A stretch of DNA of 38,848 nt from an uncultured Verrucomicrobiota bacterium (GTDB lineage Bacteria > Verrucomicrobiota > Verrucomicrobiia > Opitutales > Opitutaceae). Location of the stretch: positions 1-38,848 of the forward strand of contig CAIRBK010000086.1 of the NCBI GenBank assembly GCA_903876795.1, read 5' to 3'. Below the pieces are notes generated by a model. It did not search any database. It saw only the letters and a program-made list of their open reading frames with translations, and was not told the DNA's origin. Positions 6,250-38,848 of this stretch are shown here, piece after piece. How positions within the stretch are numbered: the first letter of the stretch is position 1; each line of letters begins with the position of its first letter. The position numbers and the translations under genes were made by a program.

Positions 6250-6289
6250 GTGTCGATTTGATCGAACGAAGACCCACTGCGCTGCGTAA

Positions 6290-6373: not shown

Positions 6374-6378
6374 GGTGC

Positions 6379-8577: not shown

Positions 8578-8927
8578 TAATTTGTGAAAAACCTTTCGGC
8601 ATACCTTTTGTCGGTCGAGCCAAACTTATGAGGCCGATGCAGAATGGCATTTATACCCGCCTGGTTTTCCCATCGCTTGTTGGGCGCGAACGGTCCGTTA
8701 TTTCTTTGTAATAATGATGGTTGCGTGAATTAAGACTAGCCGGATGAAACGGCTCCGCCGTTCCGCTACGGATTCCCAACGTGCGGAATCGCGGAGCGAT
8801 TTCGGTTTGGAGATCGTTTAATCCAAAAGCATCCAGTCATCGGTATAAGTGGCAATGCAAGCTGACCGCAGACAGCGGAAGTCTTGCGACAAAGGGGCTC
8901 TTTGGCTGGCGCAGGCCATGCCCACGC
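8578..8927. other. intergenic region without a supportable gene
   Basis: These 350 bp separate the defence remnants from the housekeeping genes. They contain a small hairpin AACGGC-TCC-GCCGTT (8748-8762), and base composition changes from mixed to GC-rich at about 8,900. No promoter, terminator or RNA gene could be identified with confidence. It may be one boundary of the accessory island. Confidence 0.5.
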
Positions 8928-12910: not shown

Positions 12911-13537
12911 ATGTGCCGCGAGATGGGAAGAACCAGCAACGCCGACGAACGCCTGATGACCGCCGCCCTCGACCTCATGTGGGAGGAGAGTTATGGTGCG
13001 GTCTCGATCGACGATATCTGTAAGCGGGCAGGGGTGAAGAAGGGGTCATTTTACTATTTCTACGAATCGAAATCCGCGCTCGCGGTGGCCGCTCTGGAGC
13101 GCATGGCGTTGGCCCAAAAAGCGGTCTGGGACCGGCAGTTTTCGCCGACCACGCCGCCCCTGGATCGCATCCGGGCCCGGTGCGAGTTTACCTATCAGAA
13201 ACAGCGCGAGCTGAAGGCCAAACACGGCAAAGTGCTGGGTTGTCCGTTGTGCTCTTTGGGGTCGGAGATTTGCACGCAGGATGACCGCATCCGCGACAAG
13301 ATCCGCGAGATCTGTTCGCTCAACATGAAGTATTGGGAGTCGACCATCCGCGACGCCCAGAGCGAGGGACTCATCGCTCCCGGCGACGCCGCCGCCAAGG
13401 CGCGTTGCGTTTTCGCCTACTATGAAGGCCTGATCACCCAGGCCCGCATCTACAACGACGCCGAGTTGCTCAGGAATCTCTCCGACCTGGTTTTGGCGCA
13501 CTTGCACGCCAAAGAGCCCCACTCGGCGGTGGCCTGA
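12911..13537 (+). CDS. TetR-family regulator, NemR-like electrophile sensor
   Basis: This 208-aa protein has an N-terminal TetR HTH (about residues 10-55, VSIDDICKRAGVKKGSFYYF) and an all-helical ligand domain. Its segment VLGCPLCSLGSEICTQDD has Cys111, Cys114 and Cys121. It aligns by eye with the region of E. coli NemR around Cys106, the residue that reacts with electrophiles and hypochlorous acid. The gene is followed by an Old Yellow Enzyme homologue, as nemR is followed by nemA in E. coli, and by three more reductases. It is therefore probably a repressor released by reactive electrophiles. The ATG at 12911 is used; an alternative ATG at 12923 would remove MCRE. Sensing by these cysteines is inferred. 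Confidence 0.8.
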   Translation: MCREMGRTSNADERLMTAALDLMWEESYGAVSIDDICKRAGVKKGSFYYFYESKSALAVAALERMALAQKAVWDRQFSPTTPPLDRIRARCEFTYQKQRELKAKHGKVLGCPLCSLGSEICTQDDRIRDKIREICSLNMKYWESTIRDAQSEGLIAPGDAAAKARCVFAYYEGLITQARIYNDAELLRNLSDLVLAHLHAKEPHSAVA

Positions 13538-13570
13538 CTTAAAAAAACGCGGATTTTCGTTTCCCGTGTT

Positions 13571-13598
13571 TGCACTAGACAAACAGTCAACTATCGCT
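13571..13598 (+). promoter_or_regulatory. candidate promoter and operator of the reductase operon
   Basis: A -35-like TTGCAC (13571-13576) and a weak -10-like TATCGC (13593-13598) are 16 nt apart. Between them lies TAGACAAACAGTCAA (13577-13591), an imperfect palindrome with GAC/GTC cores. A repressor bound there would block RNA polymerase, which is the usual layout of TetR-family operators. The site is 38 nt upstream of the alkene reductase ATG. Confidence 0.4.
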
Positions 13599-13635
13599 GC
13601 GTCGATCATCTCATTGCCCTCAATCTATTACCTTT

Positions 13636-14700
13636 ATGCCTACCCTGTTTGATCCGCTCCAAGCCGGAGCCTTTGCTCTTCGCAACCGTGTCGTGATGGC
13701 ACCGTTGACCCGTTGCCGGGCGGACGCCGGTCGTGTGCCGACTGCGCTTATGGCCGAGTATTACCGCCAGCGCGCATCGGCCGGGCTTATCCTCTCCGAG
13801 GCCACGGCGGTTGACCCGATGGGTGTGGGTTACCCGGACACGCCTGGCATCTGGTCGGCCGAACAGGTCGCGGGCTGGAAACTCGTCACGCAGGCCGTGC
13901 ATGCCGAGGGCGGCACGATCCTTTTGCAACTTTGGCATGTGGGGCGCGTTTCGCATCCGATTTATCTCAACGGCGCGTCGCCGGTCGCCCCCAGTGCCAT
14001 CGCCGCTCCGGGCCATGTGAGCCTGGTCAGGCCCGAGCAGCCGCATCCCGAGCCGCGCGCTCTGGAGCGGGCGGAGATCCCGGGCATCGTCGCGGCCTAT
14101 CGTCGCGGCGCGCAACTCGCCCAGCAGGCCGGTTTCGACGGAGTCGAGATCCACGGGGCCAACGGCTACCTGCTCGACCAGTTTCTCCAGACCTCCACCA
14201 ACCACCGCACCGACGACTACGGCGGTCCGGTCGAGAATCGCGCACGACTGATGTTGGAGGTTGCCGACGCCGCCATCGGCGTGTGGGGCGCGGGCCGCGT
14301 GGGCATGCACCTCTCGCCGCGCGGCGATTTCCTCGGCATGGGCGACGCCGATCCGGCCGCGACGTTCAGTTATGTCGCCCGCGAACTGGGTGCCCGTCGC
14401 ATCGCTTTCCTCTGCGCCCGCGAGGGGCTCGCCGAGCCGCGCCTGGGCCCGGCGCTCAAGCGCGCGTTCGGGGGCGTGTTCATCGCCAACCAGGGGTTCA
14501 CGGCCGAGACCGCCGCCGGAGAAATCGCCGCCGGCCACGCCGACGCGGTCGCCTGGGGACAGCTCTTCATCGCCAACCCCGACCTGCCTGCGCGTCTGCG
14601 CAGCGGGGCGTCGCTCAACACCCCGGATGCATCCACGTTTTATCCTGCTCCGGGTGCCGACCGCGCGCGTGGTTTCACCGACTACGCCGCGCTTTCGTAA
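13636..14700 (+). CDS. nemA: Old Yellow Enzyme-family alkene reductase (NemA-like)
   Basis: This 354-aa FMN-dependent TIM-barrel enzyme reduces activated C=C bonds and nitro groups with NAD(P)H. Visible features are APLTRCRAD near residue 22, QLWHVGR at 98-104, and GVEIHGANGYLLDQFLQ around 169-185. His173 and Asn176 are the usual substrate-binding pair. NHRTDDYGGPVENRARL follows, and the C-terminus has a phosphate-binding GGVFIANQGF. Length and motif order match NemA/XenB-type OYEs. It is the first gene of a four-gene run behind a NemR-like regulator, with gaps of 47, 33 and 10 nt. The ATG fits the family N-terminus (LFDPLQAGAFALRNRVVMAP). Confidence 0.9.
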   Translation: MPTLFDPLQAGAFALRNRVVMAPLTRCRADAGRVPTALMAEYYRQRASAGLILSEATAVDPMGVGYPDTPGIWSAEQVAGWKLVTQAVHAEGGTILLQLWHVGRVSHPIYLNGASPVAPSAIAAPGHVSLVRPEQPHPEPRALERAEIPGIVAAYRRGAQLAQQAGFDGVEIHGANGYLLDQFLQTSTNHRTDDYGGPVENRARLMLEVADAAIGVWGAGRVGMHLSPRGDFLGMGDADPAATFSYVARELGARRIAFLCAREGLAEPRLGPALKRAFGGVFIANQGFTAETAAGEIAAGHADAVAWGQLFIANPDLPARLRSGASLNTPDASTFYPAPGADRARGFTDYAALS

Positions 14701-14747
14701 CACCCACTGGCTCGCATTCTGCTAGGTCCGCAAACACCTTTCCACCC

Positions 14748-15320
14748 ATGCCCACCATATCCATCGTCTATTATTCCGGAGGCGGCCACACCGCCGTGTT
14801 CGCCGAAGCCGTCGCCGAGGGCGCCAAGTCGGTCTCCGGCACCAGCGTCAACCTCCTCCGCATCGACGGAAAAGACATCGTCGAGGGCCGTTTTAAAAAC
14901 GACGCTTTCCTGGCGACGCTCAACGCGAGCGACGCGATCATCTTTGGCTCCCCGACCTACATGGGCGGCCCGAGCGGACAGTTCAAAACCTTCGCCGACG
15001 CCACCGGCGGCATCTGGTATCAACAGCAGTGGAAGGACAAGCTCGCGGCCGGTTTTACCGTCTCGGCCGGCACGAGCGGCGACAAGCTGAACACGCTGGA
15101 ATATTTCTTCATCCTCTCGCAGCAGCACGGGATGGTGTGGATCGGCACCGGCGTGCTCCCTTACGCCACCGGCCAGATCAACCGCTACAGCTTTTCCAGC
15201 GGCGCGGCCGGCCAGGCCAACCAGGAACCCGTCACCGAAAAGCCCGACGCCGAGGACAAGGCAACCGGCGCCCACTTGGGCCGCCGTGTAGCCGAGGCCG
15301 CCGTTCGCTGGGCCAAGTAA
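14748..15320 (+). CDS. flavodoxin-like NAD(P)H:quinone reductase-type protein
   Basis: This 190-aa flavodoxin-fold protein has the FMN phosphate loop in SIVYYSGGGHTAVFAEA (residues 4-20). FGSPTYMGGPSGQFKTF lies around 66-82, followed by the family segment GFTVSAGTSGDK. The pattern SPTYMGGPSGQFK is that of WrbA and related flavodoxin-fold reductases, which carry out two-electron reduction of quinones. It is the second gene of the reductase operon and probably lowers quinone or electrophile stress. No signal peptide is present, so the protein is cytoplasmic. The exact substrate is unknown. Confidence 0.8.
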   Translation: MPTISIVYYSGGGHTAVFAEAVAEGAKSVSGTSVNLLRIDGKDIVEGRFKNDAFLATLNASDAIIFGSPTYMGGPSGQFKTFADATGGIWYQQQWKDKLAAGFTVSAGTSGDKLNTLEYFFILSQQHGMVWIGTGVLPYATGQINRYSFSSGAAGQANQEPVTEKPDAEDKATGAHLGRRVAEAAVRWAK

Positions 15321-15353
15321 TCTCCCTCCCCGCCACTCCGACTTTTCCCAAAC

Positions 15354-16004
15354 ATGTCCACCATTCCGACCACCCAGCTCATCGACGCCCTCAAATGGCG
15401 TTATGCCACCAAGAAATTCGACTCCGCCAAAAAAATCCCCGCCGACACCTGGGCCGCGCTTGAAGAGTCTCTCGTGCTGACGCCGTCTTCGTTCGGTGCG
15501 CAACCGTGGAAGTTCCTCGTCGTTAACACCCCCGAACTCCGCGCGAAACTGGTGCCGGTTTCCTGGGGACAGACCCAGGTCGTGGACGCGTCCCACCTCG
15601 TGGTTTTCGCGTTCAAGCAGAACCTCGACGAGGCTCACATCGACCGCTACATCGCCAGCGCCGCGCAGATCCGGGGCATCACGGTCGAGGCGATGGATCC
15701 CTTCAAAAAAATCATCATGGGCAGCCTCGAAGGCGCGCGCGCCAAGGGCTACCTGGACGTCTGGCAATCTCGCCAGATCTATATCGCGCTCGGCCAGTTC
15801 ATGGCCTCGGCCGCGTTGCTGGGCATCGACACCTGTCCGATGGAGGGAATCGATCCGGCCAAGTATGACGAGATCCTCGGCCTCACGGGCACCGGCTACA
15901 CGACGCTTTGCGCCTGCCCGGCCGGCTACCGCTCCGCCGACGACAAATACGCGACCACCCCCAAGGTGCGTTTCCCGCTCTCCGAGGTGATCGCGCACCT
16001 GTGA
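15354..16004 (+). CDS. NfsB-like NAD(P)H-dependent nitroreductase
   Basis: This 216-aa enzyme belongs to the nitroreductase FMN family. The N-terminus LKWRYATKKFDSAKKIPAD carries the conserved FMN-binding Arg-Tyr-Ala-(T/V)-K-x-F/Y pattern. TPSSFGAQPWKFLVV (about 43-57) and the C-terminal GTGYTTLCACPAGYRS complete the fold seen in E. coli NfsB. Members reduce nitroaromatics, quinones and related electrophiles. It is the third gene of the operon, 10 nt before the alcohol dehydrogenase. No anomalies are seen in length or motifs. Confidence 0.88.
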   Translation: MSTIPTTQLIDALKWRYATKKFDSAKKIPADTWAALEESLVLTPSSFGAQPWKFLVVNTPELRAKLVPVSWGQTQVVDASHLVVFAFKQNLDEAHIDRYIASAAQIRGITVEAMDPFKKIIMGSLEGARAKGYLDVWQSRQIYIALGQFMASAALLGIDTCPMEGIDPAKYDEILGLTGTGYTTLCACPAGYRSADDKYATTPKVRFPLSEVIAHL

Positions 16005-16014
16005 TCGCCAGGCC

Positions 16015-17226
16015 ATGAACTCGTTCTCGATCTACACGCCGACGCGCATTTTTTTCGGAACCGACCAACTCGCGCCGTTTGCCGCGTCGGTGGCCCGGCT
16101 GGGGCGTCACGCCCTCGTGGTCGTCGGCGGCGGCAGTGTCGAGCGTCTGGGCTATCTGGACGAAGTCTCCGGCGCGCTCGCGCGGGCCGGCCTGCGCGTC
16201 ACCGTGTTTCGCGGGATCGAGCCCAACCCGGAATCGGCCACCATCAACCGCGCTGTCGCCGTGCTGCGCGACTCGGGGGCCGACGTGGTCGTGCCGCTCG
16301 GCGGCGGTTCCGTCATGGACGCGGCCAAGGCCGTCGCGGCGCTCGGCGCGCTGCCGGGGGAAAACGACATCTGGCCTTTTGTGCTCGGCCAGCCGCGCGC
16401 GTTCCAGCTCGCGGCGGCGCTGCCGTTGGCCGCCGTGCCCACCACCGCCGCGACCGCCTCGGAAGTCACGCCTTACGCGGTGATTTCCAACCGGGCGGTC
16501 CGGGGCAAGTCGGTCCTCGCGCACGAATCGTTCAAGCCGGCGGCGGCCCTGCTCAACCCCGCCTTCACCGCCAAGGTGCCGGCGGTCACGACGCAGGACG
16601 GCGCGGCCGACATCCTCAGCCATGTCCTGGAGAACTACCTGTTGGGCGGCGACGAGTCGGCGCTGGCCGACCACCATGCGGAGGGCGTCATGGCCGCGGT
16701 CCTGGAGAGTTTGCCCCGCGTGTTGGCCAATCCCGGAGATTTGGCGCATCGCGGACGCCTGCTTTGGGCATCCACCCTCGCGCTCAATGAATATCCGAAC
16801 GCGGGCCGCCGCCCCTCCCAGTTCGTGCTTCACTCGATGGAGCATGCCCTCAGCGGCTGGTATCCGGATCTCGCGCACGGCCGCGGGCTGGCGACGCTTT
16901 ATCCCGCCTATTTCCGCTGGCTGCTGGCGCGGGGGCGGGCGCAATCCCGGTTCGCGCGGCTCGGCGAGCGCCTCTTCGGACTCGCGGGGGCAGATGCGGC
17001 GGATCGTTTCGTCGAACGGTTCGAGGCCTGGCTCGGGGCGAACGGCCTGCTCCAGGCGCTCGGCGACCTGGGTATCGCCGAGGCGGACTACGCCGCAGTG
17101 GCCGACTACGCCGTGAAAACCTACGGTGACGGCCGGCAGCTGGACGCGCTCGGGGCACTGCCCGCTGCGGAGATCGTCGCGATATTCAAAGCGACGGCCC
17201 GGCAAGCCCGCGTTCCGCAGGGTTGA
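16015..17226 (+). CDS. iron-type alcohol dehydrogenase, YqhD-like aldehyde reductase
   Basis: This 403-aa group III alcohol dehydrogenase has an NAD(P)-binding GGGSVMDAAKAVA (about residues 97-109). The metal ligands read as Asp199 and His203 (DILSHVLE), His277 (HSMEHALSG) and His288 (DLAHGRG). The overall sequence resembles E. coli YqhD, an NADPH-dependent reductase of short aldehydes including glyoxal and lipid-peroxidation products. That fits a detoxification operon with the NemR-like regulator. The N-terminal INSFSIYTPTRI-like start is typical of butanol-dehydrogenase relatives. The last 41 nt overlap the 3' end of the convergent pseudouridine synthase gene. Cofactor and metal choice are not determined by sequence alone. 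Confidence 0.88.
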   Translation: MNSFSIYTPTRIFFGTDQLAPFAASVARLGRHALVVVGGGSVERLGYLDEVSGALARAGLRVTVFRGIEPNPESATINRAVAVLRDSGADVVVPLGGGSVMDAAKAVAALGALPGENDIWPFVLGQPRAFQLAAALPLAAVPTTAATASEVTPYAVISNRAVRGKSVLAHESFKPAAALLNPAFTAKVPAVTTQDGAADILSHVLENYLLGGDESALADHHAEGVMAAVLESLPRVLANPGDLAHRGRLLWASTLALNEYPNAGRRPSQFVLHSMEHALSGWYPDLAHGRGLATLYPAYFRWLLARGRAQSRFARLGERLFGLAGADAADRFVERFEAWLGANGLLQALGDLGIAEADYAAVADYAVKTYGDGRQLDALGALPAAEIVAIFKATARQARVPQG

Positions 17227-17764
17227 GTTCGCGCCAGCGCCCGGGGGCCAGCCCCATATCGGCCAACATGAGTTGGCCGATGCGCGCCCTCAGCAGGCGC
17301 AGAGTCGGGTGGCCGACCGCCGCGGTCATGCGGCGCACCTGGCGGTTTTTGCCCTCGATGAGTTCGAGCGCGATCCAGGCGTCGGGCACGGTTTTGCGGA
17401 AACGCACCGGCGGGTCGCGCGGCGGGAGGGCGGGCGGAGGATCCAGACGCCGCGCCCGGCAGGGCAGGGTGAGGTGGTCCCCGATCTTTACGCCCCGGGC
17501 GAGTTGGGCGAGAGCGGCGTCGGACGGGATGTGCTCCACTTGAGCCCAGTATTCGCGATGGTGGCCGTGTTTGGGATCGAGCATGCGGGTGTTGAGCCCG
17601 GGTTCGTCGGTGAGCAGCAGCAGGCCCTCGGAGTCCGCGTCGAGGCGGCCGACGGGATAGACGCGCCCGGGCAGGCCGAAGTCGGCCAGCGTGCGCCACG
17701 CCGAACCGGACTCGGGGGTGAATTGCGAGAGCACGCCGTAGGGCTTGTTGAGGGCGAGAAGCAC
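17186..17764 (-). CDS. rluE: 23S rRNA pseudouridine synthase of the RluE group
   Basis: This 192-aa protein has the RsuA/RluE catalytic motif GRLDADSEGLLLLTD (Asp42 as the nucleophile). The family C-terminus is EGKNRQVRRMTAAVGHPTL, followed by LLRARIGQL. It starts directly with the catalytic domain (LALNKPYGVLSQFTPE) and has no S4 RNA-binding domain, which distinguishes RluE from RsuA and RluB. The expected role is pseudouridine formation in 23S rRNA; the exact uridine is inferred from E. coli. Its end overlaps the end of the alcohol dehydrogenase gene by 41 nt in the opposite orientation. Confidence 0.85.
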   Translation of the reverse strand: MLLALNKPYGVLSQFTPESGSAWRTLADFGLPGRVYPVGRLDADSEGLLLLTDEPGLNTRMLDPKHGHHREYWAQVEHIPSDAALAQLARGVKIGDHLTLPCRARRLDPPPALPPRDPPVRFRKTVPDAWIALELIEGKNRQVRRMTAAVGHPTLRLLRARIGQLMLADMGLAPGRWRELNPAERGLAGPSL

Positions 17765-17854
17765 CGCGACAGGGAAAACGGAATCGGGCGGGCACGGAAG
17801 TTTTGAAACGCGGATTTTTTTGGCGACCCCGGGAAATCGGGCTACGTTGACCTC

Positions 17855-18859
17855 ATGAAAGCCGCGAACCTAACCGCCATCAACGAACTCGCGATCGTCG
17901 ATCAGCCCCTGCCCGAGCCGGTGGCAGGCGAGGTCCGGGTGCGCCTGCAAGCCGCCGCGCTCAACCACCGCGACGTATGGATCAAGCAGGGCCACTACGC
18001 CGGTCTGCGGTTTCCCTGCCGGCCGGGCTCGGACGGCGCCGGCGTGGTCGAGGCGGTGGGCGCGGGTGTGGATGCCGACTGGCTCGGGGGCGACGTGATC
18101 ATCAACCCGGCGTTCGGCTGGGGAACGCGGGAGCGTGCCCAGGGCGAGGATTTCTCGATCCTGGGTCTGCCGCGAGACGGCACGCTGGCCGAGGCCATCA
18201 TCGTGCCCGTCGGGCAGCTCGCGCCCAAGCCGGAGCATCTTTCCTGGGCCGAGGCGGCGGCTTTGCCGCTGGCGGGCCTCACGGCTTATCGGGCCTTGTT
18301 TGGCCGGGGACGGCTTCAGACCGGAGAAAAGGTTCTCATCAAAGGTGTCGGCGGCGGCGTGGCGTCGTTGGCGCTGCAGTTTGCCGTCGCCTGCGGGGCC
18401 GAGGTGTATGTGACCTCCGGTAGCGACGAAAAGATCGAACGGGCCATCCGTCTCGGCGCGGCGGGCGGTTTCAACTACACGCATCCTGGCTGGGCCAAAA
18501 CGGCGTCACATGCGCATGCGGACCGGTTGTTCGACCTGATCCTGGACAGCGCGGGCGGGGAGGGCTTCGAGGCGTTGCTCGACCTGGCCGCTCCGGGCGG
18601 GCGCGTGGTGTTTTGCGGGGCGACCCGGGGCAACCCGCCGGTGCTGCCCATGCGCAAGGTCTTTTGGCGCCAGCTTTCGCTGCTCGGCACGACGATGGGC
18701 AGTCCGGCGGACTGGACCGCGATGCTGGCGTTTGTCGGGCGCCACGGCATCAAGCCGGTCGTGAGCGCGACCTTCGCCCTGGACCGGGCGGCGGAGGCCT
18801 TTGCCCTGATGGAACGCGGCGGTCAGTTCGGCAAAATCGTGGTCACGATGCAGTCGTGA
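17855..18859 (+). CDS. medium-chain dehydrogenase/reductase, quinone-reductase-like
   Basis: This 334-aa MDR-superfamily oxidoreductase has an N-terminal GroES-like domain ([13 protein letters not shown], then [15 protein letters not shown]). Its Rossmann domain carries [18 protein letters not shown] (about residues 160-177). The structural-zinc cysteines of true alcohol dehydrogenases are not visible, which is usual for the quinone oxidoreductase and YogA-like branches. It is transcribed singly, 90 nt after the divergent rluE start. The substrate is not predictable; reduction of quinones or enones would suit the neighbourhood but is unproven. Confidence 0.8.
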
Positions 18860-18929
18860 TTTTTGCGGCGCGGCCAAAATCCTTCTTGGATTCCGCCCGC
18901 GCGGGCGGCACGTTTATCGGTCTATTTCC

Positions 18930-20288
18930 ATGAAAATTTGCTGCATTGGCGCCGGTTATGTGGGTGGTCCGACGATGGCGGTGATCGCGTTAAAGGCTCC
19001 GGACATCCAAGTCACCGTGGTCGATATGAACGCCACGCGCATCGCCGCGTGGAATTCGGACACGCTTCCGGTTTACGAGCCGGGTTTGGACGAGGTCGTG
19101 AGGCAGGCCCGCGGTCGCAACTTGTTTTTTTCGACCGACGTGAGGGGCGCCATCGCGGCGGCCGACATCATTTTTGTCTCGGTCAACACCCCGACCAAGA
19201 CCTACGGCGTGGGCTCCGGCCGCGCCGCCGATCTGCGCTACATCGAGTCGGTCGCCCGCACGATCGCCGAGGTCTCCACCACGCCGAAGATCATCGTGGA
19301 AAAATCCACCATTCCCGTGAAGACCGCCGAGACGATCCAGCAGATCCTCGCGGCCAACACCAACGGCGCGACCTTCCAGGTGTTGTCCAATCCCGAGTTC
19401 CTCGCCGAGGGCACGGCGGTGGTCGATCTTTTTAATCCTGACCGCGTCCTGATCGGCGGGGAGCGCACCCCGGCGGGCGACGCCGCCGTGAAGACGCTCG
19501 CCGACGTCTATGCCCGCTGGGTGCCGCGCGAGCGCATCATCACGACCAATCTGTGGTCGTCGGAACTCTCCAAGCTCGTGGCCAACGCCTTCCTCGCCCA
19601 GCGCATCTCCTCGATCAACGCCATCTCGGCGCTCTGCGAGGCGACCGGCGCCGACGTGGACGAGGTGGCCAACGCGATCGGCAAGGATTCGCGCATCGGC
19701 CCCAAGTTCCTCAAGGCCTCGGTCGGCTTCGGCGGCTCCTGCTTCCAGAAGGACATCCTCAACCTCGTCTATCTCTGCGAAAGCTTCGGCCTGCCCGCAG
19801 TGGCCGCCTACTGGAACGGCGTCGTGGAGATGAACGACTACCAGAAACGCCGGTTCTCCGCCCGGATCGTGCGGTCACTCTTCAACACCGTGGCCGACAA
19901 GCGCATCGCGGTGCTGGGTTTCGCCTTCAAAAAAGACACCAACGACACGCGTGAATCCGCCGCGATCCATGTCGTGCGCGACCTGCTCGCCGAGCAGGCC
20001 AACGTGGTTGTTTACGACCCCAAGGTGGCCGCCGCCGACATCCAGGCCGACGTGCTGGGCAAAGGTGTCGCCAATCCCCGCCTCAACGTCGCCGCGAGCG
20101 CCTACGAGGCCGCTCTGAACGCGCATGCCATCGCCATCGTGACCGAGTGGGACGAGTTCAAGACACTCGACTATGCGAAGATCTTCGCGGGCATGCACAA
20201 GCCCGCCTTCCTTTTCGACGGGCGCAACATCGTCGATCTGGCCCACCTGCGCGCACTCGGATTCCGCGCCCACGGCATCGGACGCTGA
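18930..20288 (+). CDS. ugd: UDP-glucose 6-dehydrogenase (eukaryote-like type)
   Basis: This 452-aa enzyme oxidises UDP-glucose to UDP-glucuronate with two NAD+. GAGYVGG (residues 7-13) binds NAD, and catalytic Cys271 lies in [10 protein letters not shown]. The typical [21 protein letters not shown] and [16 protein letters not shown] are present. The sequence resembles the animal/plant type ([36 protein letters not shown]) more than the shorter enterobacterial Ugd. UDP-glucuronate serves capsule, exopolysaccharide or lipid modification, but no glycosyltransferases are adjacent. The gene ends 6 nt before the convergent PAS gene. Confidence 0.92.
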
Positions 20289-31212: not shown

Positions 31213-31249
31213 GAAGAGCCGGACCCCGATCGGTCCGGCTCTTCTTTTT
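31213..31249 (+). terminator. rho-independent terminator
   Basis: GAAGAGCCGGACC and GGTCCGGCTCTTC form a perfect 13-bp stem around a 6-nt loop, followed by TTTTT. It lies 28 nt after the stop of the small gene at 30805-31185 and between convergent genes. Confidence 0.92.
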
Positions 31250-31749: not shown

Positions 31750-32490
31750 ATGTCCGCTACTAGCATGATTCATTTCTTTCTTTGGGCGGCGATGGTGGCG
31801 GCTGCCGGGGCAACTCAAGCCATCGCCGCCGAAGTCACCTACAGCGAAGTCTCCCGCAAGGAAGTCCGCCTGGGTGATCACACCGTCACGCTAATCCGAG
31901 TGCGTCCGCCGGTCCTGCCGAAAGCCGTTCCCGCGCCCGCCGCGCCGTCGCGTCCGTTGACTGCGGAGGAAAAAGCGCGGGAGGAGCGCCTGGCCCAAAA
32001 AGGTTACGCCACGCTCAGCCTCTCGGTGACGGTTTACCTGGGCGGGAAAACGCCCGTCACCGAATTGCGCTGGCGCGACGAAGGCGGCGGGACCGAATAC
32101 CTTGCTTATTCCAACATCGATTTTCGCCACCTCACCCAGCTGAGCACGCTTGAAACGGAAACCACCGTTTATTCATGGTTCCCGTTCGTGGAGGAGTGGC
32201 ATTTGGAGGACTGGCCTTCCGATCAAAAATTTCCGATCCCGCAGGGACTTAACTTCAGCCCCACGGACGCGGAGTATTACGTCGATGAGCAGGCCAAGAG
32301 GCTTAAGGATCAAGAAACCACTTTGGCAGGCCTCGATTACCTGCATGCCTATTACCAAATCAACCATGCCAAGCTGAAGGCCGACTACGAAAAGCGAGAG
32401 GTTGAAAACGCCGGGCGCGAACGTCGGTTGCGAGAAAATCCACCCAAGCCGCCGGATGTCAATGTGCGTTGGTGGCCGCTCAAATCATGA
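31750..32490 (+). CDS. secreted protein of unknown function
   Basis: This 246-aa protein has an N-terminal signal peptide (MIHFFLWAAMVAAAGATQAIAA after the first five residues), so export across the inner membrane is likely. The mature part holds a proline-rich stretch (about 55-75), a beta-rich region (YATLSLSVTVYLGGKTPVTE), and a charged helical C-terminus (QINHAKLKADYEKREVENAG). No family is recognised. An upstream GTG at 31717 is possible but places charged residues before the signal peptide. Its TGA overlaps the ATG of the next gene (ATGA), so the two are translationally coupled and probably work together at the cell surface. Confidence 0.7.
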   Translation: MSATSMIHFFLWAAMVAAAGATQAIAAEVTYSEVSRKEVRLGDHTVTLIRVRPPVLPKAVPAPAAPSRPLTAEEKAREERLAQKGYATLSLSVTVYLGGKTPVTELRWRDEGGGTEYLAYSNIDFRHLTQLSTLETETTVYSWFPFVEEWHLEDWPSDQKFPIPQGLNFSPTDAEYYVDEQAKRLKDQETTLAGLDYLHAYYQINHAKLKADYEKREVENAGRERRLRENPPKPPDVNVRWWPLKS

Positions 32491-35400
32491 CCTTTCGTTT
32501 TCCTTTCATGTTCAGGCAAGGCATCCTTTTGGTCCTGATTTCGGGGTGCATGGGAGGGCTCTCGGCCCAAACTGCCACCGACGAGAATCTGGGCGCAAAA
32601 TTGACCGTGGACAGCTCGACCGTTCCGCCGACCTATTCGTTCACTTGGTGGGGCAAGAAAGGGAGGCATTATTTGGCGGAAACGTCGCCGGATTTGGCCA
32701 CATGGACGTTTTTGCCAAATTTCAACCCTCTCGGCTCCGACGCGGTCCTTGGCATCCAGTTTACGACCGACGCGGATAAATATTTTTTCCGCGCGATCCA
32801 ATTCGACCAAGACGGAACCTCGACTTTAAAAGACACCGACGGCGATGGCCTGCCTGACAAATGGGAGCAGTATTTCTTCACCAACCTGAACCCATCGCGG
32901 GATGAGGACACCGATGGAGATGGAATCCCCAATCGCATCGAAATCTGGTTTGGCCTGAACCCGACGGTTGCCGATGCGGATATGCTTTTAAGCAGGATTG
33001 ACAATTTGCGCCTGCAGTTGACGGCGGGCGCGGGTGTGACGTCGGGAGCGGGCGGCAAGGTCAGCTTGTGGGCGGATCAAAGCGGCAAAGGCAATAACGC
33101 CTCCCAAAACGCCGGTTCCCCGCAGCCGCTGCTGGTCGCGAACGAACTCAACGGGCGTCCGGTTATCCGCTTTGATGGGGCAGATGATTACCTCAATTTG
33201 CCCAACGTGATGAGCGGCGCGTCCGCCGGTGAAATCCTGGCCGTTTTGAAGCTCCCCGAACCCACGACTCGTATCAATGCCCTCTGGCATTTCGGCACCG
33301 GCAACGGCTCCTTGTATTATTTCGGGTCGCGCTACGACGACTTTGGCTCGAACAATGGCTCCAGTTACAACCCGCCGCCCGCCTCCGAACTCACACGATT
33401 TCATTATTACAACGTTTCAATGGGCGCGGGAACATGGGTTGAGCGTCTAAACGGCTTGGAGCGCCTGCGGCGCACCGGCCAGAACTTCGCATTCCGCATC
33501 GATCCGTTGATCGGCAGACGCCAAGGCTACAGCCAATACCTCAAGGGAGACATCGCCGAAATCCTGATCTTTGAAAAAGTCCTCACCGAAAGGCAGCGCG
33601 AGGCCGTGTATGTGTATTTGAATACCAAGTATGCACCCGCCGCCGTGCCCGTTCCGGCTGCTCCCATCAATTTGCAGGCCAAGGCTTTTTCCTCAGATGC
33701 GGTCACCTTAGCTTGGACCACGCAGGAGAGCGGCCTTCAAACCCAGGCCACGGTGGAGCGCAGTGTGGGAGGGGGCGACTTTGCGACCGTAGCCGATCTG
33801 GCCAATGCGATGGGCTATACCGACACCGGCTTGACCGCGGGGGAGACGTATGCCTACCGCGTAAAACTCCGCAGCTATGCGGGCAGTTCAGCCTACAGTT
33901 CCACAGTTTCCGTGGTAACCCCGGCGGAGACGGTTTTAGTGCCTTCATTGGGCCTGCGATTGTGGCTGAAGGCAGATCAAGGCACTCAAGGCGCAGGTGT
34001 GCTTTCGACATGGTATGACCAAAGCCCGAATCTTAACCATGCCGTCCAAGGGGACGAGTCCGCCAAGCCGCAGATCCTGGCGAATCAGCTCAACGGTCGG
34101 CCGGTTGCGCGGTTCGACGGCTCCAACGATTTGATGAGCCTGCCCAACGTGATGAGCGGCGCGTCCGCCGGTGAAATCCTGGCAGTGTTGAAAGTTCCGG
34201 AGCCCACGACTCGTATCAATGCCCTCTGGCATTTCGGCACCGGCAACGGGTCCCTTTATTACTCGGGTTCGCGCTACGACGATTTTGGCTCGGACAATGG
34301 ATCCAGTTTCAGCACCCCGCCTGCTTCGGCTCTCACGCAGTTTCATTATTATAACGTATCCATGAGTGGTGGACTGTGGGTGGAGCGGTTGAACGGTTTG
34401 GAGCGCCAGCGGCGCACCGGCCAGAACTTCGCTTTCCGCAGTGATCCGCTGATAGGCAAGCGCCAAGGCTACAGCCAATACCTCAAGGGAGACATCGCTG
34501 AAATCCTCGTTTACGACCGCGCCTTGACGGACGCTGAGCGCCAGTCGGCCAACCGTTATTTGACCGCCAAATACGCGCCACCGGCGATCCCGGTGCCCGC
34601 CGCGCCGTCCGGTCTCCGGGCGGTCACGCTGGCCGCCAACCAGGTGAACCTGGCTTGGACCGTCGCCGAATCCTCCTTGCGCACGACCGCCACCATCGAG
34701 CGCAAAACCGGAGCCGGTGCATTTGAGGTCGTTGCCGTGAAAGAAAACGCGTTCGAGTTCACGGACACGCCGCCTTCGCCAGGAACGACCTACACATATC
34801 GCGTAAAGCTCGCCAGCTTCGCGGGCAGTTCGGCTTACAGTCCCGAAGTGAGCACGACGACGCTGCTCGGCACGCGCGATCTGCCCACCGCCGGCCTTCG
34901 TCTGCGCTTGCAGGCAGGCGCAGGCGGGCAAGGCGTGGGTCCGCTTTCCACTTGGTTTGATCAAAGCGGTCTGGGCAACCATGCCACCCAGGGAGTCGAG
35001 GCCGCCAAGCCCTTGATTGTGGCCAATCAGCTCAACGGATTGCCCGTGGTTCGTTTCGATGGCAGCGACGACATGCTGAACCTGTCCAACGTGATGAGCG
35101 GAGCCGCCGGCGGTGAAATCATCGCCGTTTTAAAGGTTCCCGAGCCGGCCTCGCGGATCAACGCTCTGTGGCATTTCGGCACGGCCAACGGCTCGCTGTA
35201 TTACAATGGCTCGCGCTACGACGATTTCGGCTCGAACAACGGCTCGATCTATCCGGCACCGGCGGCATCCGCGCTGCAAGCCTACCACTGCTACAATGTT
35301 TCCACGGGCGGCGGGTTGTGGCTAGAGCGGTTCAACGGCTCCGTAACCCGGCGCCGCACGGCGCAGCCTTTGGCCTTCCGCAGCGATCCGCTTATCGGCA

Positions 35401-35831
35401 AACGGCAAGGCTACAGCGAATACCTCAAGGGGGACATCGCCGAAATCCTCGTTTATGACCGTGCGCTCACCGACTCCGAGCGGGAGGCGGTTTTTTACAC
35501 GATGGCCATGCGTTACGGCTTCCTGTCATCCTCTGATTTTGTCACCTACAGCGATGTGAACGGCGATGGTGTTTCCGACAAACTGGGGCTTAACTACGGC
35601 ATCTCCCCGTTTAATCTGGATTCCGACGGCGACGGCGTGCGCAACGATGTCGAACTCGCCCTGGGCACCGATCCCCTGCTCGCCGATACCGACGGGGACG
35701 GGGTTGACGATGGCGTGGACGCCTATCCTCTCGATGCGACTCGCAGCCAATCCCCGGGCCCCGTCGCTGGCGACGTGACCGCTCCTGACATCACGCTTTT
35801 GGAGCCGACCGACGCCACCCCGATCTTTTAA
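32487..35831 (+). CDS. large secreted protein with three lectin-fold/FN3 units and calcium-binding repeats
   Basis: This 1,114-aa protein has a signal peptide (FRQGILLVLISGCMGGLSA, about 9-27). A calcium-type repeat region (DTDGDGLPDKWE and DTDGDGIPNRIE) lies at about 116-165. Three concanavalin-A-like (LamG-type) domains start near residues 172, 485 and 799, the first two each followed by a fibronectin-III domain (about 388-480 and 702-795). At the end is a second set of DxDGDG repeats (about 1020-1085). Each lectin-like unit carries VIRFDG/VARFDG, NVMSGA and KGDIAEILIFE/VYD. Units repeat at exactly 942 bp. The layout suggests a surface or extracellular adhesin or carbohydrate-binding protein. 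It lacks a visible membrane anchor or PEP-CTERM tail. It is coupled to the preceding gene by a 4-nt overlap and lies 18 nt before the RHS gene. Confidence 0.85.
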   Translation: MTFRFPFMFRQGILLVLISGCMGGLSAQTATDENLGAKLTVDSSTVPPTYSFTWWGKKGRHYLAETSPDLATWTFLPNFNPLGSDAVLGIQFTTDADKYFFRAIQFDQDGTSTLKDTDGDGLPDKWEQYFFTNLNPSRDEDTDGDGIPNRIEIWFGLNPTVADADMLLSRIDNLRLQLTAGAGVTSGAGGKVSLWADQSGKGNNASQNAGSPQPLLVANELNGRPVIRFDGADDYLNLPNVMSGASAGEILAVLKLPEPTTRINALWHFGTGNGSLYYFGSRYDDFGSNNGSSYNPPPASELTRFHYYNVSMGAGTWVERLNGLERLRRTGQNFAFRIDPLIGRRQGYSQYLKGDIAEILIFEKVLTERQREAVYVYLNTKYAPAAVPVPAAPINLQAKAFSSDAVTLAWTTQESGLQTQATVERSVGGGDFATVADLANAMGYTDTGLTAGETYAYRVKLRSYAGSSAYSSTVSVVTPAETVLVPSLGLRLWLKADQGTQGAGVLSTWYDQSPNLNHAVQGDESAKPQILANQLNGRPVARFDGSNDLMSLPNVMSGASAGEILAVLKVPEPTTRINALWHFGTGNGSLYYSGSRYDDFGSDNGSSFSTPPASALTQFHYYNVSMSGGLWVERLNGLERQRRTGQNFAFRSDPLIGKRQGYSQYLKGDIAEILVYDRALTDAERQSANRYLTAKYAPPAIPVPAAPSGLRAVTLAANQVNLAWTVAESSLRTTATIERKTGAGAFEVVAVKENAFEFTDTPPSPGTTYTYRVKLASFAGSSAYSPEVSTTTLLGTRDLPTAGLRLRLQAGAGGQGVGPLSTWFDQSGLGNHATQGVEAAKPLIVANQLNGLPVVRFDGSDDMLNLSNVMSGAAGGEIIAVLKVPEPASRINALWHFGTANGSLYYNGSRYDDFGSNNGSIYPAPAASALQAYHCYNVSTGGGLWLERFNGSVTRRRTAQPLAFRSDPLIGKRQGYSEYLKGDIAEILVYDRALTDSEREAVFYTMAMRYGFLSSSDFVTYSDVNGDGVSDKLGLNYGISPFNLDSDGDGVRNDVELALGTDPLLADTDGDGVDDGVDAYPLDATRSQSPGPVAGDVTAPDITLLEPTDATPIF
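33000..35515. repeat. three intragenic units with 942-bp period
   Basis: The segment beginning GTGATGAGCGGCGCGTCCGC starts at 33207 and again, unchanged, at 34149; the related copy starts at 35091. The two intervals are both 942 bp (314 codons). Units 1 and 2 are almost identical over parts of the lectin-like domain, unit 3 more diverged. This indicates duplication, with continued homogenisation between the first two. Confidence 0.85.
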
Positions 35832-35849
35832 CGTTTATACTTCCGTTTC

Positions 35850-38848
35850 ATGCTCCCGGCCTCTCCTCGTTCATGCACATTTCGCCATCCTCATTCGTTT
35901 TGGGTGCGCACCTGCTCGGCTCTGCTGCTGCCGCTCTACCTAAATCTCACGTTCGCGGTCGGCCCGTGGGGATTCATGGCCGCCCCTTCGTATGCCGGCG
36001 AGGGCTCTTCCGAGATGGCCGGGAGTGAACCGAAGCCGGTCCGCACGCCGTCGCACGTCACCATCAATCGGCGGTTGCCCGCTTCCGTCGTCACGGCTCC
36101 GTTGGCCGCAGGGTTTGTTTTTTCCAATGCGCCCACCGACGCCGAGCTGTTCCGGGCCCGCATCCTGACCGAGCCTTTTGTTCCAGCCGGCGGGAGCGAA
36201 ACACCGGGTGAAAACGCGGCACTCGCCGACGCGATTCAAACCTTTCAGGCCGCCGTCAATCAGGATGACCTCAGTGCGTTTGTCGGCTTTCTTGATGCCC
36301 ATCCCAAGTCGCGCTGGGCCGCAAGTGTGCACCTCAACCTTGGGCTTCGGTATTTTCGCACCGCATATTTTACGAAGGCCCTGGTCTCTTATGAGAAATC
36401 CTGGTTGCTCGCCAAGGACGCCAAGGGAGAGCAGGGCCGGGCCATCGCGGATCGTGCGATAGGCGAGCTCTTCCAGCTCAATGCCCGTCTTGGCCGCGCC
36501 GAGGTGCTCGTGCAGTTGGAAACCCAGATCGCGGGTCGCACGCTTCAAGGCATGGCCACCGAGCTGCTCGTGGGAGCCCGCTCCGGCCTCTGGCTTATGC
36601 AAAACCGGCCGGAAGACGCATTCCGCTGCGGCCCCGGGGCTCTGGACCGCATCCTTGCCCATAAAAATGGCAACGTTGGCTTTAACGAGAAGCTCATGAC
36701 CTCCCGTTCCACCTCGCAGGGGCTTTCACTCACCCAAGTCTGGCAATTGTCGAAGGAGGTGGGCCTTGATTACCAGATGGCCCGGCGCACCCCGGGCGCC
36801 TCCCTGCTCACCCCCGCCGTGATTCATTGGAAGGTGGGCCACTACGCCGCGCTTATCGGCGAGCAACAGGGCATAAGCACCCTCGAAGACCCCACCTTCG
36901 GGCTCCCCTTTACCGCGACTCGCAACGCTCTCGACACCGAGGCCAGCGGTTATTTTCTGGTTCCGGCCGGTCCGCTTCCCGAGGGTTGGTCGCCTGTTAA
37001 TGCCGCCGAAGGCGCTACCGTGTGGGGCAAGGGCAACACCTCGGACAATGATCCCGACGCCACCCGTGATTATGACCAAAAAACCTGTCCCGGCGGTGAC
37101 GGCCAGGGGATGCCCGTCGCCTCCGCCCATCTCATGACGGTGAGTCTTAACCTCGTCGATACTCCTCTTCGTTACACCCCTCCCGTCGGCCCTGCCGTCG
37201 CCTTTACCCTTACCTATAATCAGCGCGAGGCCGGCCAGCCCGCCGTTTTCACGTTCGGCAATGTCGGTAAAAAATGGACGCACAACTGGCTTTCCTTCAT
37301 CGAGGAAGTCATCCCTCCGGGAACTCCGGGCGGCGGCTTGGTTGCAAAGATCCCCAAGCTTTATCTGCCCGGCGGCGGCAGCGAACTTTACCTCACCTAC
37401 ACCCAGGCAACGTCGCTGCGCCCCGGCTGTTCTTATCAACCGGAAAGCGGGGTCTGTCTGACCAAGACCTCGGCCACGACATATGAACGCGCCGCGGTTG
37501 ACGGCTCCAAGCTCATCTACCGCCTCGTTAATGATAACCGCCGCTATGACCTCGTTGAGGTAATCGACCCGGCCGGGAACAAGCTCGGCTTGAGCTACGA
37601 CGGCTCCTCCCGGCTCGTCGCCATTACCGATGCGCTTGGCCAGGTCACGACGCTTGACTATGCGGATTCAGCCAATCCGCTGCGCCTGACCAAGGTCACC
37701 GATCCATTCGGGCGCCACTGCGTGTTGGGCTATAATGCCGACGGCAAGCTCTCCACCCTCACCGACGTCGTCGGGCTAACCTCCACGGTCTCCTACCAGA
37801 CCGACACGGATTTCATCAACAGTCTGACCACGCCTTATGGCACCAGCACCTTTGCCTTTGGCGGACAGGGGCGCGATCGCTGGCTCACCCTCACCGACCC
37901 TCAGGGTGAGACCGAACGCCTGGAGTTCCGGGATAATTCGCCGGCCTTTCCCGCAGTCGGCGCACTCCCTTTGGGCATGAACGTGACCGACAGTTATCAT
38001 AATTACCGCAATACCTTCTATTGGGACAAAAAGGCCTATAAAGAGAACCCCGTCGATGTAAACTACGCCCACACTTATCACTGGTTGCACACCAGCCTCA
38101 ATCAGGCCTCTTCCCGCCTGGAGGCCGAGAAAGCCACCCTCGAAGATCGCGTATGGTATAACTACGAGGGACAAACCTCCGCTGTTTTTAACGGCAGCAC
38201 CAGCAAGCGCACCAAAATCGGGCGCGTCCTGGACGACGGCACCACCCGGATCCACCAATACGCGTATAATGTCCTTGGCCTTGTCACCAAAGCCATCGAC
38301 CCCCTGGGCCGCGAGACCCACTATGTTTATGACACCAACGATGTTGATCTGTTGGAAATCCGCCAAAAGACCGGCCCCAACGCCGCCGACTACGCCGTGC
38401 TCGCCAAGGCGACCTACGACACCCGGCACCGGCCATTGACGACCACCGATACCGCCGGCCAGGTCACGACCTACACCTACAACACCGCCGGCCAGCCGCG
38501 CTCGATCACAAACGCCAAGTCCGAAACCACCACCTTTTGGTATCACCCCACCGGCCAAGACGCCGATGTGGACTTCGCCAATCTGGGCGCGACGGCCACA
38601 GGCTACCTTGTCATGATCGACGGCCCCCAGGCCGGTCCGGCTGACTCGGTCCGCATGACCTACGACGGGTTTGGGCGCGTGCGCACGGTGACGGAAAGCG
38701 AGGGTTACGCGGTGACGACCGATTACGATGCCTTTGACCGGCCCACGCTCGTGACCCACCCCGACGGCACGACGCGCCAGATTGTTTACGAGAAACTCGA
38801 CGCGGTGAAAACCAAGGACCGCCTCGGCCGGTGGACCCAGACGACCTA
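35850..38848 (+). CDS. RHS/YD-repeat protein with N-terminal C39-like peptidase domain (partial, runs off end)
   Basis: At least 999 codons are open from ATG 35850 to the window edge. The N-terminus has a hydrophobic export segment (SALLLPLYLNLTFA, about 24-37). A TPR-like helical region follows (about 120-230). A papain-like C39 domain is next: Cys260 in RCGPGAL, His331 in KVGHYAALIG and Asp347 in LEDPTFG form a plausible catalytic triad. After MPVASAHLM and DTPLRYTPPVGP, typical of the RHS shell start, YD repeats follow (LSYDGSSRLVAITDALGQV and others). RHS shells enclose and process C-terminal toxins; that end is outside the window. The two secreted genes upstream are 18 nt or less apart and probably form one transcription unit with it. 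Confidence 0.85.
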   Translation, partial: MLPASPRSCTFRHPHSFWVRTCSALLLPLYLNLTFAVGPWGFMAAPSYAGEGSSEMAGSEPKPVRTPSHVTINRRLPASVVTAPLAAGFVFSNAPTDAELFRARILTEPFVPAGGSETPGENAALADAIQTFQAAVNQDDLSAFVGFLDAHPKSRWAASVHLNLGLRYFRTAYFTKALVSYEKSWLLAKDAKGEQGRAIADRAIGELFQLNARLGRAEVLVQLETQIAGRTLQGMATELLVGARSGLWLMQNRPEDAFRCGPGALDRILAHKNGNVGFNEKLMTSRSTSQGLSLTQVWQLSKEVGLDYQMARRTPGASLLTPAVIHWKVGHYAALIGEQQGISTLEDPTFGLPFTATRNALDTEASGYFLVPAGPLPEGWSPVNAAEGATVWGKGNTSDNDPDATRDYDQKTCPGGDGQGMPVASAHLMTVSLNLVDTPLRYTPPVGPAVAFTLTYNQREAGQPAVFTFGNVGKKWTHNWLSFIEEVIPPGTPGGGLVAKIPKLYLPGGGSELYLTYTQATSLRPGCSYQPESGVCLTKTSATTYERAAVDGSKLIYRLVNDNRRYDLVEVIDPAGNKLGLSYDGSSRLVAITDALGQVTTLDYADSANPLRLTKVTDPFGRHCVLGYNADGKLSTLTDVVGLTSTVSYQTDTDFINSLTTPYGTSTFAFGGQGRDRWLTLTDPQGETERLEFRDNSPAFPAVGALPLGMNVTDSYHNYRNTFYWDKKAYKENPVDVNYAHTYHWLHTSLNQASSRLEAEKATLEDRVWYNYEGQTSAVFNGSTSKRTKIGRVLDDGTTRIHQYAYNVLGLVTKAIDPLGRETHYVYDTNDVDLLEIRQKTGPNAADYAVLAKATYDTRHRPLTTTDTAGQVTTYTYNTAGQPRSITNAKSETTTFWYHPTGQDADVDFANLGATATGYLVMIDGPQAGPADSVRMTYDGFGRVRTVTESEGYAVTTDYDAFDRPTLVTHPDGTTRQIVYEKLDAVKTKDRLGRWTQTT

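What the first reader, a model, noticed from the sequence alone, without database searches (positions are those of the whole stretch)
31750..38848. Three-gene secreted unit ending in a C39-peptidase RHS protein
A secreted orphan, a multi-lectin calcium-repeat protein and an RHS shell with an N-terminal cysteine-protease-like domain are coupled by 4-nt overlap and an 18-nt gap. RHS shells need proteolysis to release their toxin; a built-in C39-like domain with Cys260, His331 and Asp347 could do this or process a neighbour. The lectin protein could anchor or target the shell. I know of no described system with this set.
Basis: partly seen in the sequence, partly recalled or inferred. Interest (0 to 1): 0.65.

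Follow-up and report, generated by a model that had tools for sequence, protein, structure and literature searches.

The report
Lectin-armed Rhs toxin with built-in protease
A bacterium related to Opitutaceae carries a three-gene secreted unit in which a toxin-type protein shell has its own protease at the front and a separate sugar-binding partner that most likely plugs into that front end through a short conserved tail.

Summary
The three genes are real and form a compact unit: an unknown secreted-looking protein, a LamG/fn3/TSP3 protein, and a TPR-C39-plug-RHS protein cut off by the contig end. A confident fold (pLDDT 87.7) shows a true C39 peptidase between a TPR and an RHS shell. Its Cys260/His331/Asp347 site is conserved (Cys 81/81, Asp 79/81) in relatives from several phyla, with variable C-termini, a few with known toxin domains or immunity genes. 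This is a new variant of RHS polymorphic toxins, probably Sec-exported, not T6SS. The most telling result is new: partners beside many C39-RHS genes have variable heads (LamG, RCC1, others) and a constant ~40-residue C-terminal tail. In 374 whole genomes a tail profile hits 9 places, 8 directly before a C39-type gene. I read the partner as a targeting arm that docks by its tail on the TPR-C39 end, where C39 probably processes the tail or the shell's own N-terminus; toxin release is left to the RHS aspartyl autoprotease, whose motif is largely intact. Gene 1 is an accessory of a subset: it also precedes RHS shells with a mostly inactive transglutaminase instead of C39. Docking and cleavage are inferred, not shown.

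The parts
31213..31244 (+). terminator-like hairpin (13-bp stem, T tail) upstream of the unit
   Evidence: consensus scan only
31750..32490 (+). gene 1: secreted-looking protein of an unnamed family, 246 aa, conserved C-terminal motif around FWP/WWP
   Evidence: no Pfam or PDB relative found
32487..35831 (+). gene 2: exported-looking partner, 1114 aa, LamG, fn3, TSP3, C-terminal tail
   Evidence: overlap ATGA with gene 1
35703..35831 (+). constant C-terminal tail of gene 2 (residues 1073-1114)
35850..38848 (+). gene 3: TPR-C39-plug-RHS protein, 999 aa readable, cut by contig end
36204..36605 (+). TPR-like helical domain (residues 119-252)
36615..36971 (+). C39 peptidase domain (residues 256-374)
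   Evidence: 6mpz Z 12.8, rmsd 2.7, 117 aligned; 5xe8 Z 12.6
36627..36629 (+). Cys260 codon, predicted nucleophile
   Evidence: 16 of 16; 81 of 81
36840..36842 (+). His331 codon
   Evidence: 16 of 16; 81 of 81, partly by construction of the scan
36888..36890 (+). Asp347 codon
   Evidence: 15 of 16, one Glu; 79 of 81, one Glu, one unaligned
37047..38846 (+). plug and first half of the RHS cocoon (residues 400-999)
   Evidence: 8qja_A Z 27.7, rmsd 2.6, 476 aligned

Best explanation
Gene 3 is a Sec-exported RHS polymorphic toxin. Its cocoon encloses a C-terminal toxin (missing here) that the shell's own aspartyl autoprotease frees. At the front end sit a TPR and an active C39-type cysteine peptidase. 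Gene 2 is a separately exported targeting arm: lectin-like LamG domains in front, calcium-type TSP3 repeats, and a dedicated ~40-residue C-terminal tail. The tail docks on the TPR-C39 end of the shell, so that partner heads can be exchanged while the shell stays the same. The C39 domain most likely acts at this junction: it trims the bound tail (pattern hydrophobic-x-x-Pro-x-x-Ala/Gly, 3-4 residues from the end) or the shell's own N-terminus when the arm is in place. Gene 1 is an exported accessory of gene 2/RHS pairs in a subset of lineages, possibly a chaperone or second clamp. Shown: genes, domains, predicted folds, active-site conservation, tail conservation and its location beside C39-RHS, variable C-termini. 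Inferred: export, docking, cleavage, toxicity of this particular member, role of gene 1.
For: Fold of gene 3: TPR, C39, plug and shell. C39 site: Cys 16 of 16, His 16 of 16, Asp 15 of 16 in proteins found by protein search; Cys 81 of 81 and Asp 79 of 81 in the wider set (Cys and Asp were not part of the scan pattern). Partner tail: a simple motif occurs at the C-terminus of 16 of 77 ORFs upstream of C39-RHS and of 0 of 653 other ORFs in the same loci. A profile of tails from one set of loci (mainly Verrucomicrobiota and Myxococcota) finds two Obscuribacterales/Melainabacteria partner tails it was not built from (E 4e-4, 0.013), and the reverse profile finds four (E 0.11-0.66), among 6,232 ORFs, with one non-partner hit (E 0.4). 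In 374 whole genomes of the phylum the tail profile hits 9 places in 8 genomes at E <= 1e-3; in 8 of 9 a C39 N-terminus follows at once. Heads vary: LamG_3 in 13 of 21 partners, CHB_HEX_C_1 in 11, TSP3 in 9, RCC1 in 4. Toxin nature: RHS core followed by variable C-termini; known toxin or pretoxin domains in at most 6 of 60 C-termini (PT-HINT 2, AHH, Tox-REase-7, Ntox10, M91); Imm11 and Imm50 among 37 downstream ORFs. Own genome: C87 starts with an RHS tip that is 51-62% identical to its twelve best C39-RHS matches but 31-34% to RHS proteins of other types, followed by an orphan tip.
Against: No interaction or cleavage was tested. Many C39-RHS loci do not show this tail: at the profile's threshold it was found in 7 of the 14 C39-RHS genomes, although six of the other seven have a similar end by eye. 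Alphaproteobacterial loci instead have a ~100-aa mini-YD protein upstream, and 11 Verrucomicrobiota loci have a downstream partner that begins with a single YD strand; several have no recognised partner. One tail hit of nine (G166, 289-aa ORF) has no C39 within about 1.5 kb. The tail looks like the first strand of a bacterial Ig domain, so its conserved small residue need not be a cleavage site. Gene 1 is rare beside C39-RHS (1 of 80), and 12 of the 25 readable gene 1 loci have no intact RHS gene. At least 54 of 60 C-termini match no toxin or pretoxin family, and the window's own toxin and immunity gene are unread.
Confidence: 0.5

Rival explanations
1. C39 is purely a self-processing protease of the shell: it cuts gene 3 near its own N-terminus or plug, comparable in place to the unexplained N-terminal autocleavage of T6SS RhsA. 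The partner is co-expressed and binds elsewhere or not at all.
For: C39 lies just before the plug; RhsA of Pseudomonas protegens is cut at its N-terminal plug by an unknown mechanism (PMC8765631, passages). C39-RHS also occurs in loci without a recognised partner.
Against: Does not explain a constant tail on partners with different heads, found almost only beside C39-RHS.
Confidence: 0.25
2. The proteins are surface scaffolds or adhesion complexes, as teneurins are in animals, rather than toxins. LamG partners and RHS shells build a sticky cell-surface layer.
For: Lectin and Ig heads. Several Verrucomicrobiota members end in Cys- or Pro-rich stretches and most C-termini match no known toxin; teneurin shells also match the model (Z up to 21.6).
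Against: Aspartyl autoprotease motif kept (50 of 52 for the second Asp), some toxin and pretoxin domains, immunity families downstream, orphan tip in the own genome.
Confidence: 0.15
3. One reading: C39 releases the C-terminal toxin from the shell.
For: Cleavage of the C-terminal toxin is needed for killing by RhsA (PMC8765631, passages).
Against: The shell's own aspartyl motif is kept; C39 is at the opposite end of the chain.
Confidence: 0.06
4. The tail is a general sorting or anchoring signal, like PEP-CTERM, and says nothing about the RHS protein.
For: C-terminal, short, on exported-looking proteins.
Against: In 374 genomes it occurs in 8 genomes, once in 7 and twice in one, and 8 of 9 places precede a C39 gene; no hydrophobic segment or basic end by eye.
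Confidence: 0.03

Closest known systems
RHS proteins with N-terminal inactive transglutaminase (Zhang et al. 2012, PMC3482391; section 19 and passages seen)
   Same: Papain-fold domain right after the signal peptide, then RHS repeats and variable toxins; the authors suggest anchoring by peptide binding. In this genome the paralogous unit on C88 has this type with gene 1 and gene 2.
   Different: There one or more of C, H, D are lost (here the Cys is absent at the aligned column in 16 of 17); in C39-RHS the triad is kept. Their upstream partners end in a mini-YD hairpin (10 of 20 loci plus L033, L035, L132, by eye), not in this tail.
Tox-PL-C39 toxins (Zhang et al. 2012, passages)
   Same: C39-related domain in polymorphic toxins, some with RHS repeats.
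   Different: There the C39 domain is listed among the toxin domains; here it is N-terminal and constant while C-termini vary.
T6SS Rhs effectors (RhsA 7q97, 8qja)
   Same: Plug and cocoon fold (Z 25.0 and 27.7), core autoprotease motif in relatives.
   Different: No PAAR or VgrG match; N-terminus looks like a signal peptide; no TssC (PF05943) found in the genome.
C39 peptidases of ABC exporters (LahT150 6mpz, ComA 5xe8, PCAT1)
   Same: Fold and C-H-D triad.
   Different: Not fused to an ABC transporter; Pro254 six residues before the Cys in 75 of 81, where I recall a Gln in exporters.
Tc toxin B/C cocoon and SpvB
   Same: RHS cocoon; SpvB N-domain matches residues 427-642 (6p0x, Z 12.1).
   Different: One chain as far as readable, no SpvB Pfam match in the window protein, neighbour is a lectin protein instead of a TcA.

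Membership tests
RHS/YD polymorphic toxins | RHS/YD repeats forming a cocoon | tested here: met
   RHS_repeat 1.6e-26; Z 27.7
RHS/YD polymorphic toxins | RHS core with aspartyl autoprotease motif in this gene | tested here: inconclusive
   gene cut before the core; relatives: second Asp 50 of 52, first 42 of 52 by a crude test; C87 fragment has both by eye but was not joined
RHS/YD polymorphic toxins | variable C-terminal toxin domains in the family | tested here: met
   named toxin or pretoxin domains in at most 6 of 60
RHS/YD polymorphic toxins | immunity gene next to the window's own toxin | not testable with these tools
   gene ends at the contig end
Peptidase family C39 | C39 papain-like fold | tested here: met
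   (predicted model)
Peptidase family C39 | Cys-His-Asp triad | tested here: met
Peptidase family C39 | oxyanion Gln before the Cys | tested here: inconclusive
   Pro at -6 in 75 of 81; the place of the Gln is recalled, not tested on the model
Peptidase family C39 | cleavage after a double-glycine type site | not testable with these tools
   needs an assay; tail pattern is only suggestive
Bacteriocin ABC exporters with C39 | fused ABC transporter | tested here: not met
T6SS Rhs effectors | T6SS in the genome | tested here: not met
   0 of 1 for PF05943, genome 98% complete
RHS with N-terminal transglutaminase | Transglut_core domain | tested here: not met
   none in the window protein at E <= 1; present in paralog L033
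Tc toxins (TcB) | SpvB/TcdB domain | tested here: not met
   no Pfam SpvB match in the window protein at E <= 1; fold similarity seen for residues 427-642

The most novel reading that the evidence does not exclude
The front-end thiol domain is a coupling enzyme: C39 cuts the partner's tail after the conserved small residue and passes it on to an amine of the shell, so that any exported protein with this tail becomes covalently joined to the toxin shell, a sortase-like assembly of interchangeable targeting heads. In the transglutaminase-type shells the same site has decayed to plain binding of a mini-YD strand.
Probability: 0.07. Interest if true: 0.88.

Novelty: new variant of a known kind. 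Interest (0 to 1): 0.62.

Why it matters
[quoted passage not shown] A shell with an invariant front-end protease and a separate, exchangeable lectin arm with a constant docking tail gives a concrete, testable design for both. C39-RHS genes occur in records of several phyla, including named strains (Chthoniobacter flavus, Haloferula, Archangium, Rhizobium). If confirmed, the tail would be a portable label by which different heads are loaded onto such shells.

Tried and rejected
Gene 1 fold: single-sequence model of poor quality (pLDDT 43), not used; no PDB or Pfam relative for the 19-member family (best E 0.32 and 0.017, taken as chance). Weak Pfam hits such as RVT_1 for gene 1 rejected as below cut-off. 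PADLOC scan of 60 C-termini: nothing. Two of the 19 places (L112, L113) are ordinary C39 ABC transporters by the look of their ORFs and were dropped. In some searches, 60 of 62 C-termini were scanned (L143, L148 dropped; L100, L101 had been left out as copies of L187, L189). In one search, 37 of 39 downstream ORFs were scanned (L148, L161 dropped). In one search, 60 of 68 prepared rows were aligned. In one search, 11 of the 13 large downstream ORFs were aligned (L147, L170 left out: no YD start). In one search, 31 gene 1 places were printed; 6 at contig ends (two in L036, L122, L123, L124, L133) were left out of the count of 25. In one search some fitted cores (L103, L143, L209) are probably not the true core. 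In one search the rows L185 and L199 are probably chance fits of the loose pattern. The 21 partners were picked for their tail, so the invariance of the tail proline there is partly by choice. My first view that Obscuribacterales partners are unrelated to gene 2 was wrong: they share LamG domains; L149, L152, L169, L172, L176 and L178 share with the window's gene 2 little beyond TSP3 and tail. In one search the database held 91 C39-RHS and 7 other RHS proteins, so I compared the C87 fragment with the 7 apart. The C99 and C33 tips of the own genome look like another RHS type and were rejected as the missing end. VIA-align listed no TPR-C39 fusion of known structure; this is absence from a capped list, not a test. 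Literature: searches of the held open-access library showed in their listings no description of an N-terminal C39-RHS protein or of the partner tail; of the hits only PMC3482391 (passages, section 19), PMC8765631 (passages) and PMC10318531 (passages) were opened; figures, subscription papers and preprints were not searchable.
Full report
What is there. The window is a whole contig. Its last 7 kb hold three same-strand genes: gene 1 (31750-32490), gene 2 (32487-35831, 4-nt overlap) and gene 3 (35850 to the end, 18-nt gap). Upstream lie housekeeping genes such as pdxA and an Amidase_3 gene and a terminator-like hairpin at 31213-31244. Gene 2 matches LamG, TSP3 and fn3 families; gene 3 has RHS repeats and a sub-threshold C39 match. 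The genome is probably from or near Opitutaceae: contigs of the same length and match as G012:C311 (same genus) and G187:C24 (same family) bear the titles Opitutaceae bacterium in the named scan (L135, L187).

Gene 3 is a TPR-C39-plug-RHS protein. An AlphaFold2 model from 60 sequences has mean pLDDT 87.7 and pTM 0.88. Residues 119-252 are TPR-like. Residues 256-374 match C39 peptidases (6mpz Z 12.8, rmsd 2.7 over 117 residues; 5xe8 Z 12.6). Residues 400-999 match RHS cocoons (8qja_A Z 27.7, 7q97 RhsA Z 25.0). A profile of ten N-termini matches the C39 chain 6mpz at 5.9e-10.

The active site is kept. In 16 proteins found by protein search (the window included) Cys260 is kept in 16, His331 in 16, Asp347 in 15 (one Glu). 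In the window plus 80 loci of a named scan Cys is kept in 81 of 81, Asp in 79 of 81 (one Glu, one unaligned). That scan searched for the pattern around His331, so His and the HWK residues there are conserved partly by construction; Cys and Asp are not.

Distribution. The N-terminal query matched 16 of 387 genomes of the phylum; two of these look like ABC transporters, leaving 14. The named scan kept 80 of 100 loci, titled as Verrucomicrobia, Obscuribacterales and Melainabacteria, Myxococcota (Archangium, Labilithrix), Acidobacteria and many Proteobacteria. MAG names are as deposited and some look doubtful.

It is a polymorphic toxin shell. Of 62 full-length relatives, 52 rows fit a core motif; the second core aspartate is kept in 50 of these and the first in 42 by a crude test. 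After the core the C-termini vary. Of 60 C-termini scanned, Pfam names PT-HINT in 2 and AHH, Tox-REase-7, Ntox10 and Peptidase_M91 in one each; at least 54 match none of these. Of 53 loci with a complete end, 31 have a small ORF within 150 nt, 13 a large one and 9 none. Of 37 small ORFs scanned (29 of those 31 plus 8 from other loci), Imm11 and Imm50 occur once each, along with DUF6572, DUF3885, Sel1 and HEAT. In the own genome contig C87 begins with an RHS tip that is 51-62% identical to its twelve best C39-RHS matches and 31-34% identical to RHS proteins of other types (five of seven matched). It is followed by an orphan tip with nearly the same core and another end, then a 114-aa ORF. This is the layout of a displaced-tip locus. 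C87 is probably the end of the window's gene; the two were not joined. No T6SS sheath gene was found (PF05943, 0 of 1), so export is probably by Sec.

The unit recurs, but in layers. Gene 1 - gene 2 - C39-RHS occurs in the window, L099, L101, L102 and L103 (the gene 2 end in L102 is seen). Of 25 gene 1 loci with room to judge, 13 have an intact or contig-cut RHS gene among the next genes (RHS judged by a count of YD motifs), one more has RHS remnants, 11 have none; 5 of the 13 are C39-type. Gene 1 was found in 1 of 80 loci of the named scan. So gene 1 is a lineage-limited accessory. Other gene 1 - gene 2 pairs precede RHS proteins with a transglutaminase-like N-terminus (L033 1.5e-6, L035 3.7e-11; weak in L034 and L132), including a second unit on C88 of the same genome. 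Such RHS proteins matched in 24 of 288 genomes. Zhang et al. 2012 (PMC3482391; section 19 read) described N-terminal transglutaminase domains before RHS repeats as inactive and proposed anchoring by peptide binding. Here too the Cys is missing at the aligned column in 16 of 17 (L254 has one a residue later). The contrast with the invariant C39 site suggests that catalysis matters in the C39 type.

The partner's tail is the strongest new observation. Many genes directly upstream of C39-RHS end alike: consensus GVxDGxDAFPLDPxRSxxPxxxPGDVTPPxITLTxPxxAVPxx, then stop. A motif for it hits 16 of 77 upstream ORFs and 0 of 653 others. Profiles from one set of lineages find members of the other set at the C-terminus among 6,232 ORFs, with one non-partner hit. 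In 21 partners, picked for this tail, the only invariant column is the tail proline, while heads vary: LamG_3 13, CHB_HEX_C_1 11, TSP3 9, fn3 6, RCC1 4 of 21. In 374 genomes the tail profile gives 9 places in 8 genomes. In 8 of 9 a C39 N-terminus follows at once; in G209:C16 that C39 frame is only about 345 residues long and ends short of any RHS repeat. G135 and G166 match the profile only in part (positions 1-20 and 5-28); the G135 protein nevertheless ends in a full tail by eye and precedes a C39-RHS, while G166 has no C39 within about 1.5 kb. The profile includes the window and the contig of G187, so these two of the 8 are not independent. Of the 14 C39-RHS genomes, 7 have a tail hit (G000, G135, G187, G209, G231, G261, G402); G068, G100, G125, G206, G218 and G362 have similar ends below the threshold by eye and G350 has none.

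Other arrangements point the same way. In alphaproteobacteria a ~100-aa protein upstream consists of a signal, two YD strands and a WGSGxWGC-type tail (ten read; 8 of 77 by motif against 2 of 653). In 11 loci a large Ig or LamG protein downstream begins, after its signal, with a single YD strand whose Asp and Gly are invariant. Upstream partners of transglutaminase-RHS end in a mini-YD hairpin in 10 of 20 loci plus L033, L035 and L132, by eye. A short strand-like piece on a partner thus recurs beside RHS shells with a papain-fold front.

Mechanism. I infer that the tail docks on the TPR-C39 front and that C39 acts there. In 32 rows fitted by a loose pattern the residue three after the tail proline is Ala or Gly in 26 (Ser in one), and the protein ends 3 or 4 residues later in 24. 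I recall that C39 enzymes like hydrophobic residues at P7 and P4 and small ones at P1; but the same pattern could be the first strand of an Ig domain, so a strand-exchange role without cutting is possible. Toxin release by C39 is unlikely because the core autoprotease motif is kept. The unexplained N-terminal autocleavage of RhsA (PMC8765631, passages) makes self-processing a serious rival.

Novelty. The parts are known kinds (RHS toxins, C39 peptidases, LamG adhesins). The N-terminal C39-RHS architecture with a tail-bearing partner was not found in the paper searches made (listings, three papers opened in part). I file it as a new variant of RHS polymorphic toxins.

Noticed in passing
G000:C88 (L033:3201-10903): Second gene 1 - gene 2 - RHS unit in the same genome; gene 2 is short (204 aa) with a mini-YD end and the RHS protein has a transglutaminase-like N-terminus instead of C39.
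   Followed up: partly
G000:C87 (L051:1068-2711, L221:2715-3059): Orphan RHS tip with nearly the same core as the preceding RHS end but a different C-terminus, followed a few nt later by a 114-aa ORF that may be its immunity gene.
   Followed up: partly
L139, L140, L141, L143, L144, L145, L151, L155, L160, L175, L205: C39-RHS followed by a large secreted-looking Ig or LamG protein whose mature N-terminus is a single YD strand; the partner is downstream instead of upstream.
   Followed up: partly
L188, L190, L191, L193, L194, L197, L198, L201-L203 upstream of the RHS gene: Family of ~100-aa mini-YD proteins with a WGSGxWGC-type tail in alphaproteobacteria.
   Followed up: partly
L109 (G218:C43) 648-9511 and 13470-20000: Tandem copies (same lengths and ends) of a gene 2 - C39-RHS pair about 12.8 kb apart, with an ORF like a phage integrase between them (by eye).
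   Followed up: no
G015:C1:3955414-3959886 (L015): LamG repeats related to gene 2 lie in an open frame of 14,967 residues.
   Followed up: no
L036 (G009:C85) 5744-6512: Gene 1 homolog split over two frames near a contig end; probably decayed or an assembly error.
   Followed up: no
L278 (G166:C1) 814-1683, minus strand: 289-aa ORF with a tail-like C-terminus but no C39 within about 1.5 kb; the one exception in the whole-genome tail search.
   Followed up: partly
window 31750-32490 and 18 relatives (A7): Gene 1 belongs to a secreted-looking family without Pfam or PDB relatives found; it also precedes non-RHS genes that seem to end in membrane anchors (L119, L120, L128, L131, by eye).
   Followed up: partly
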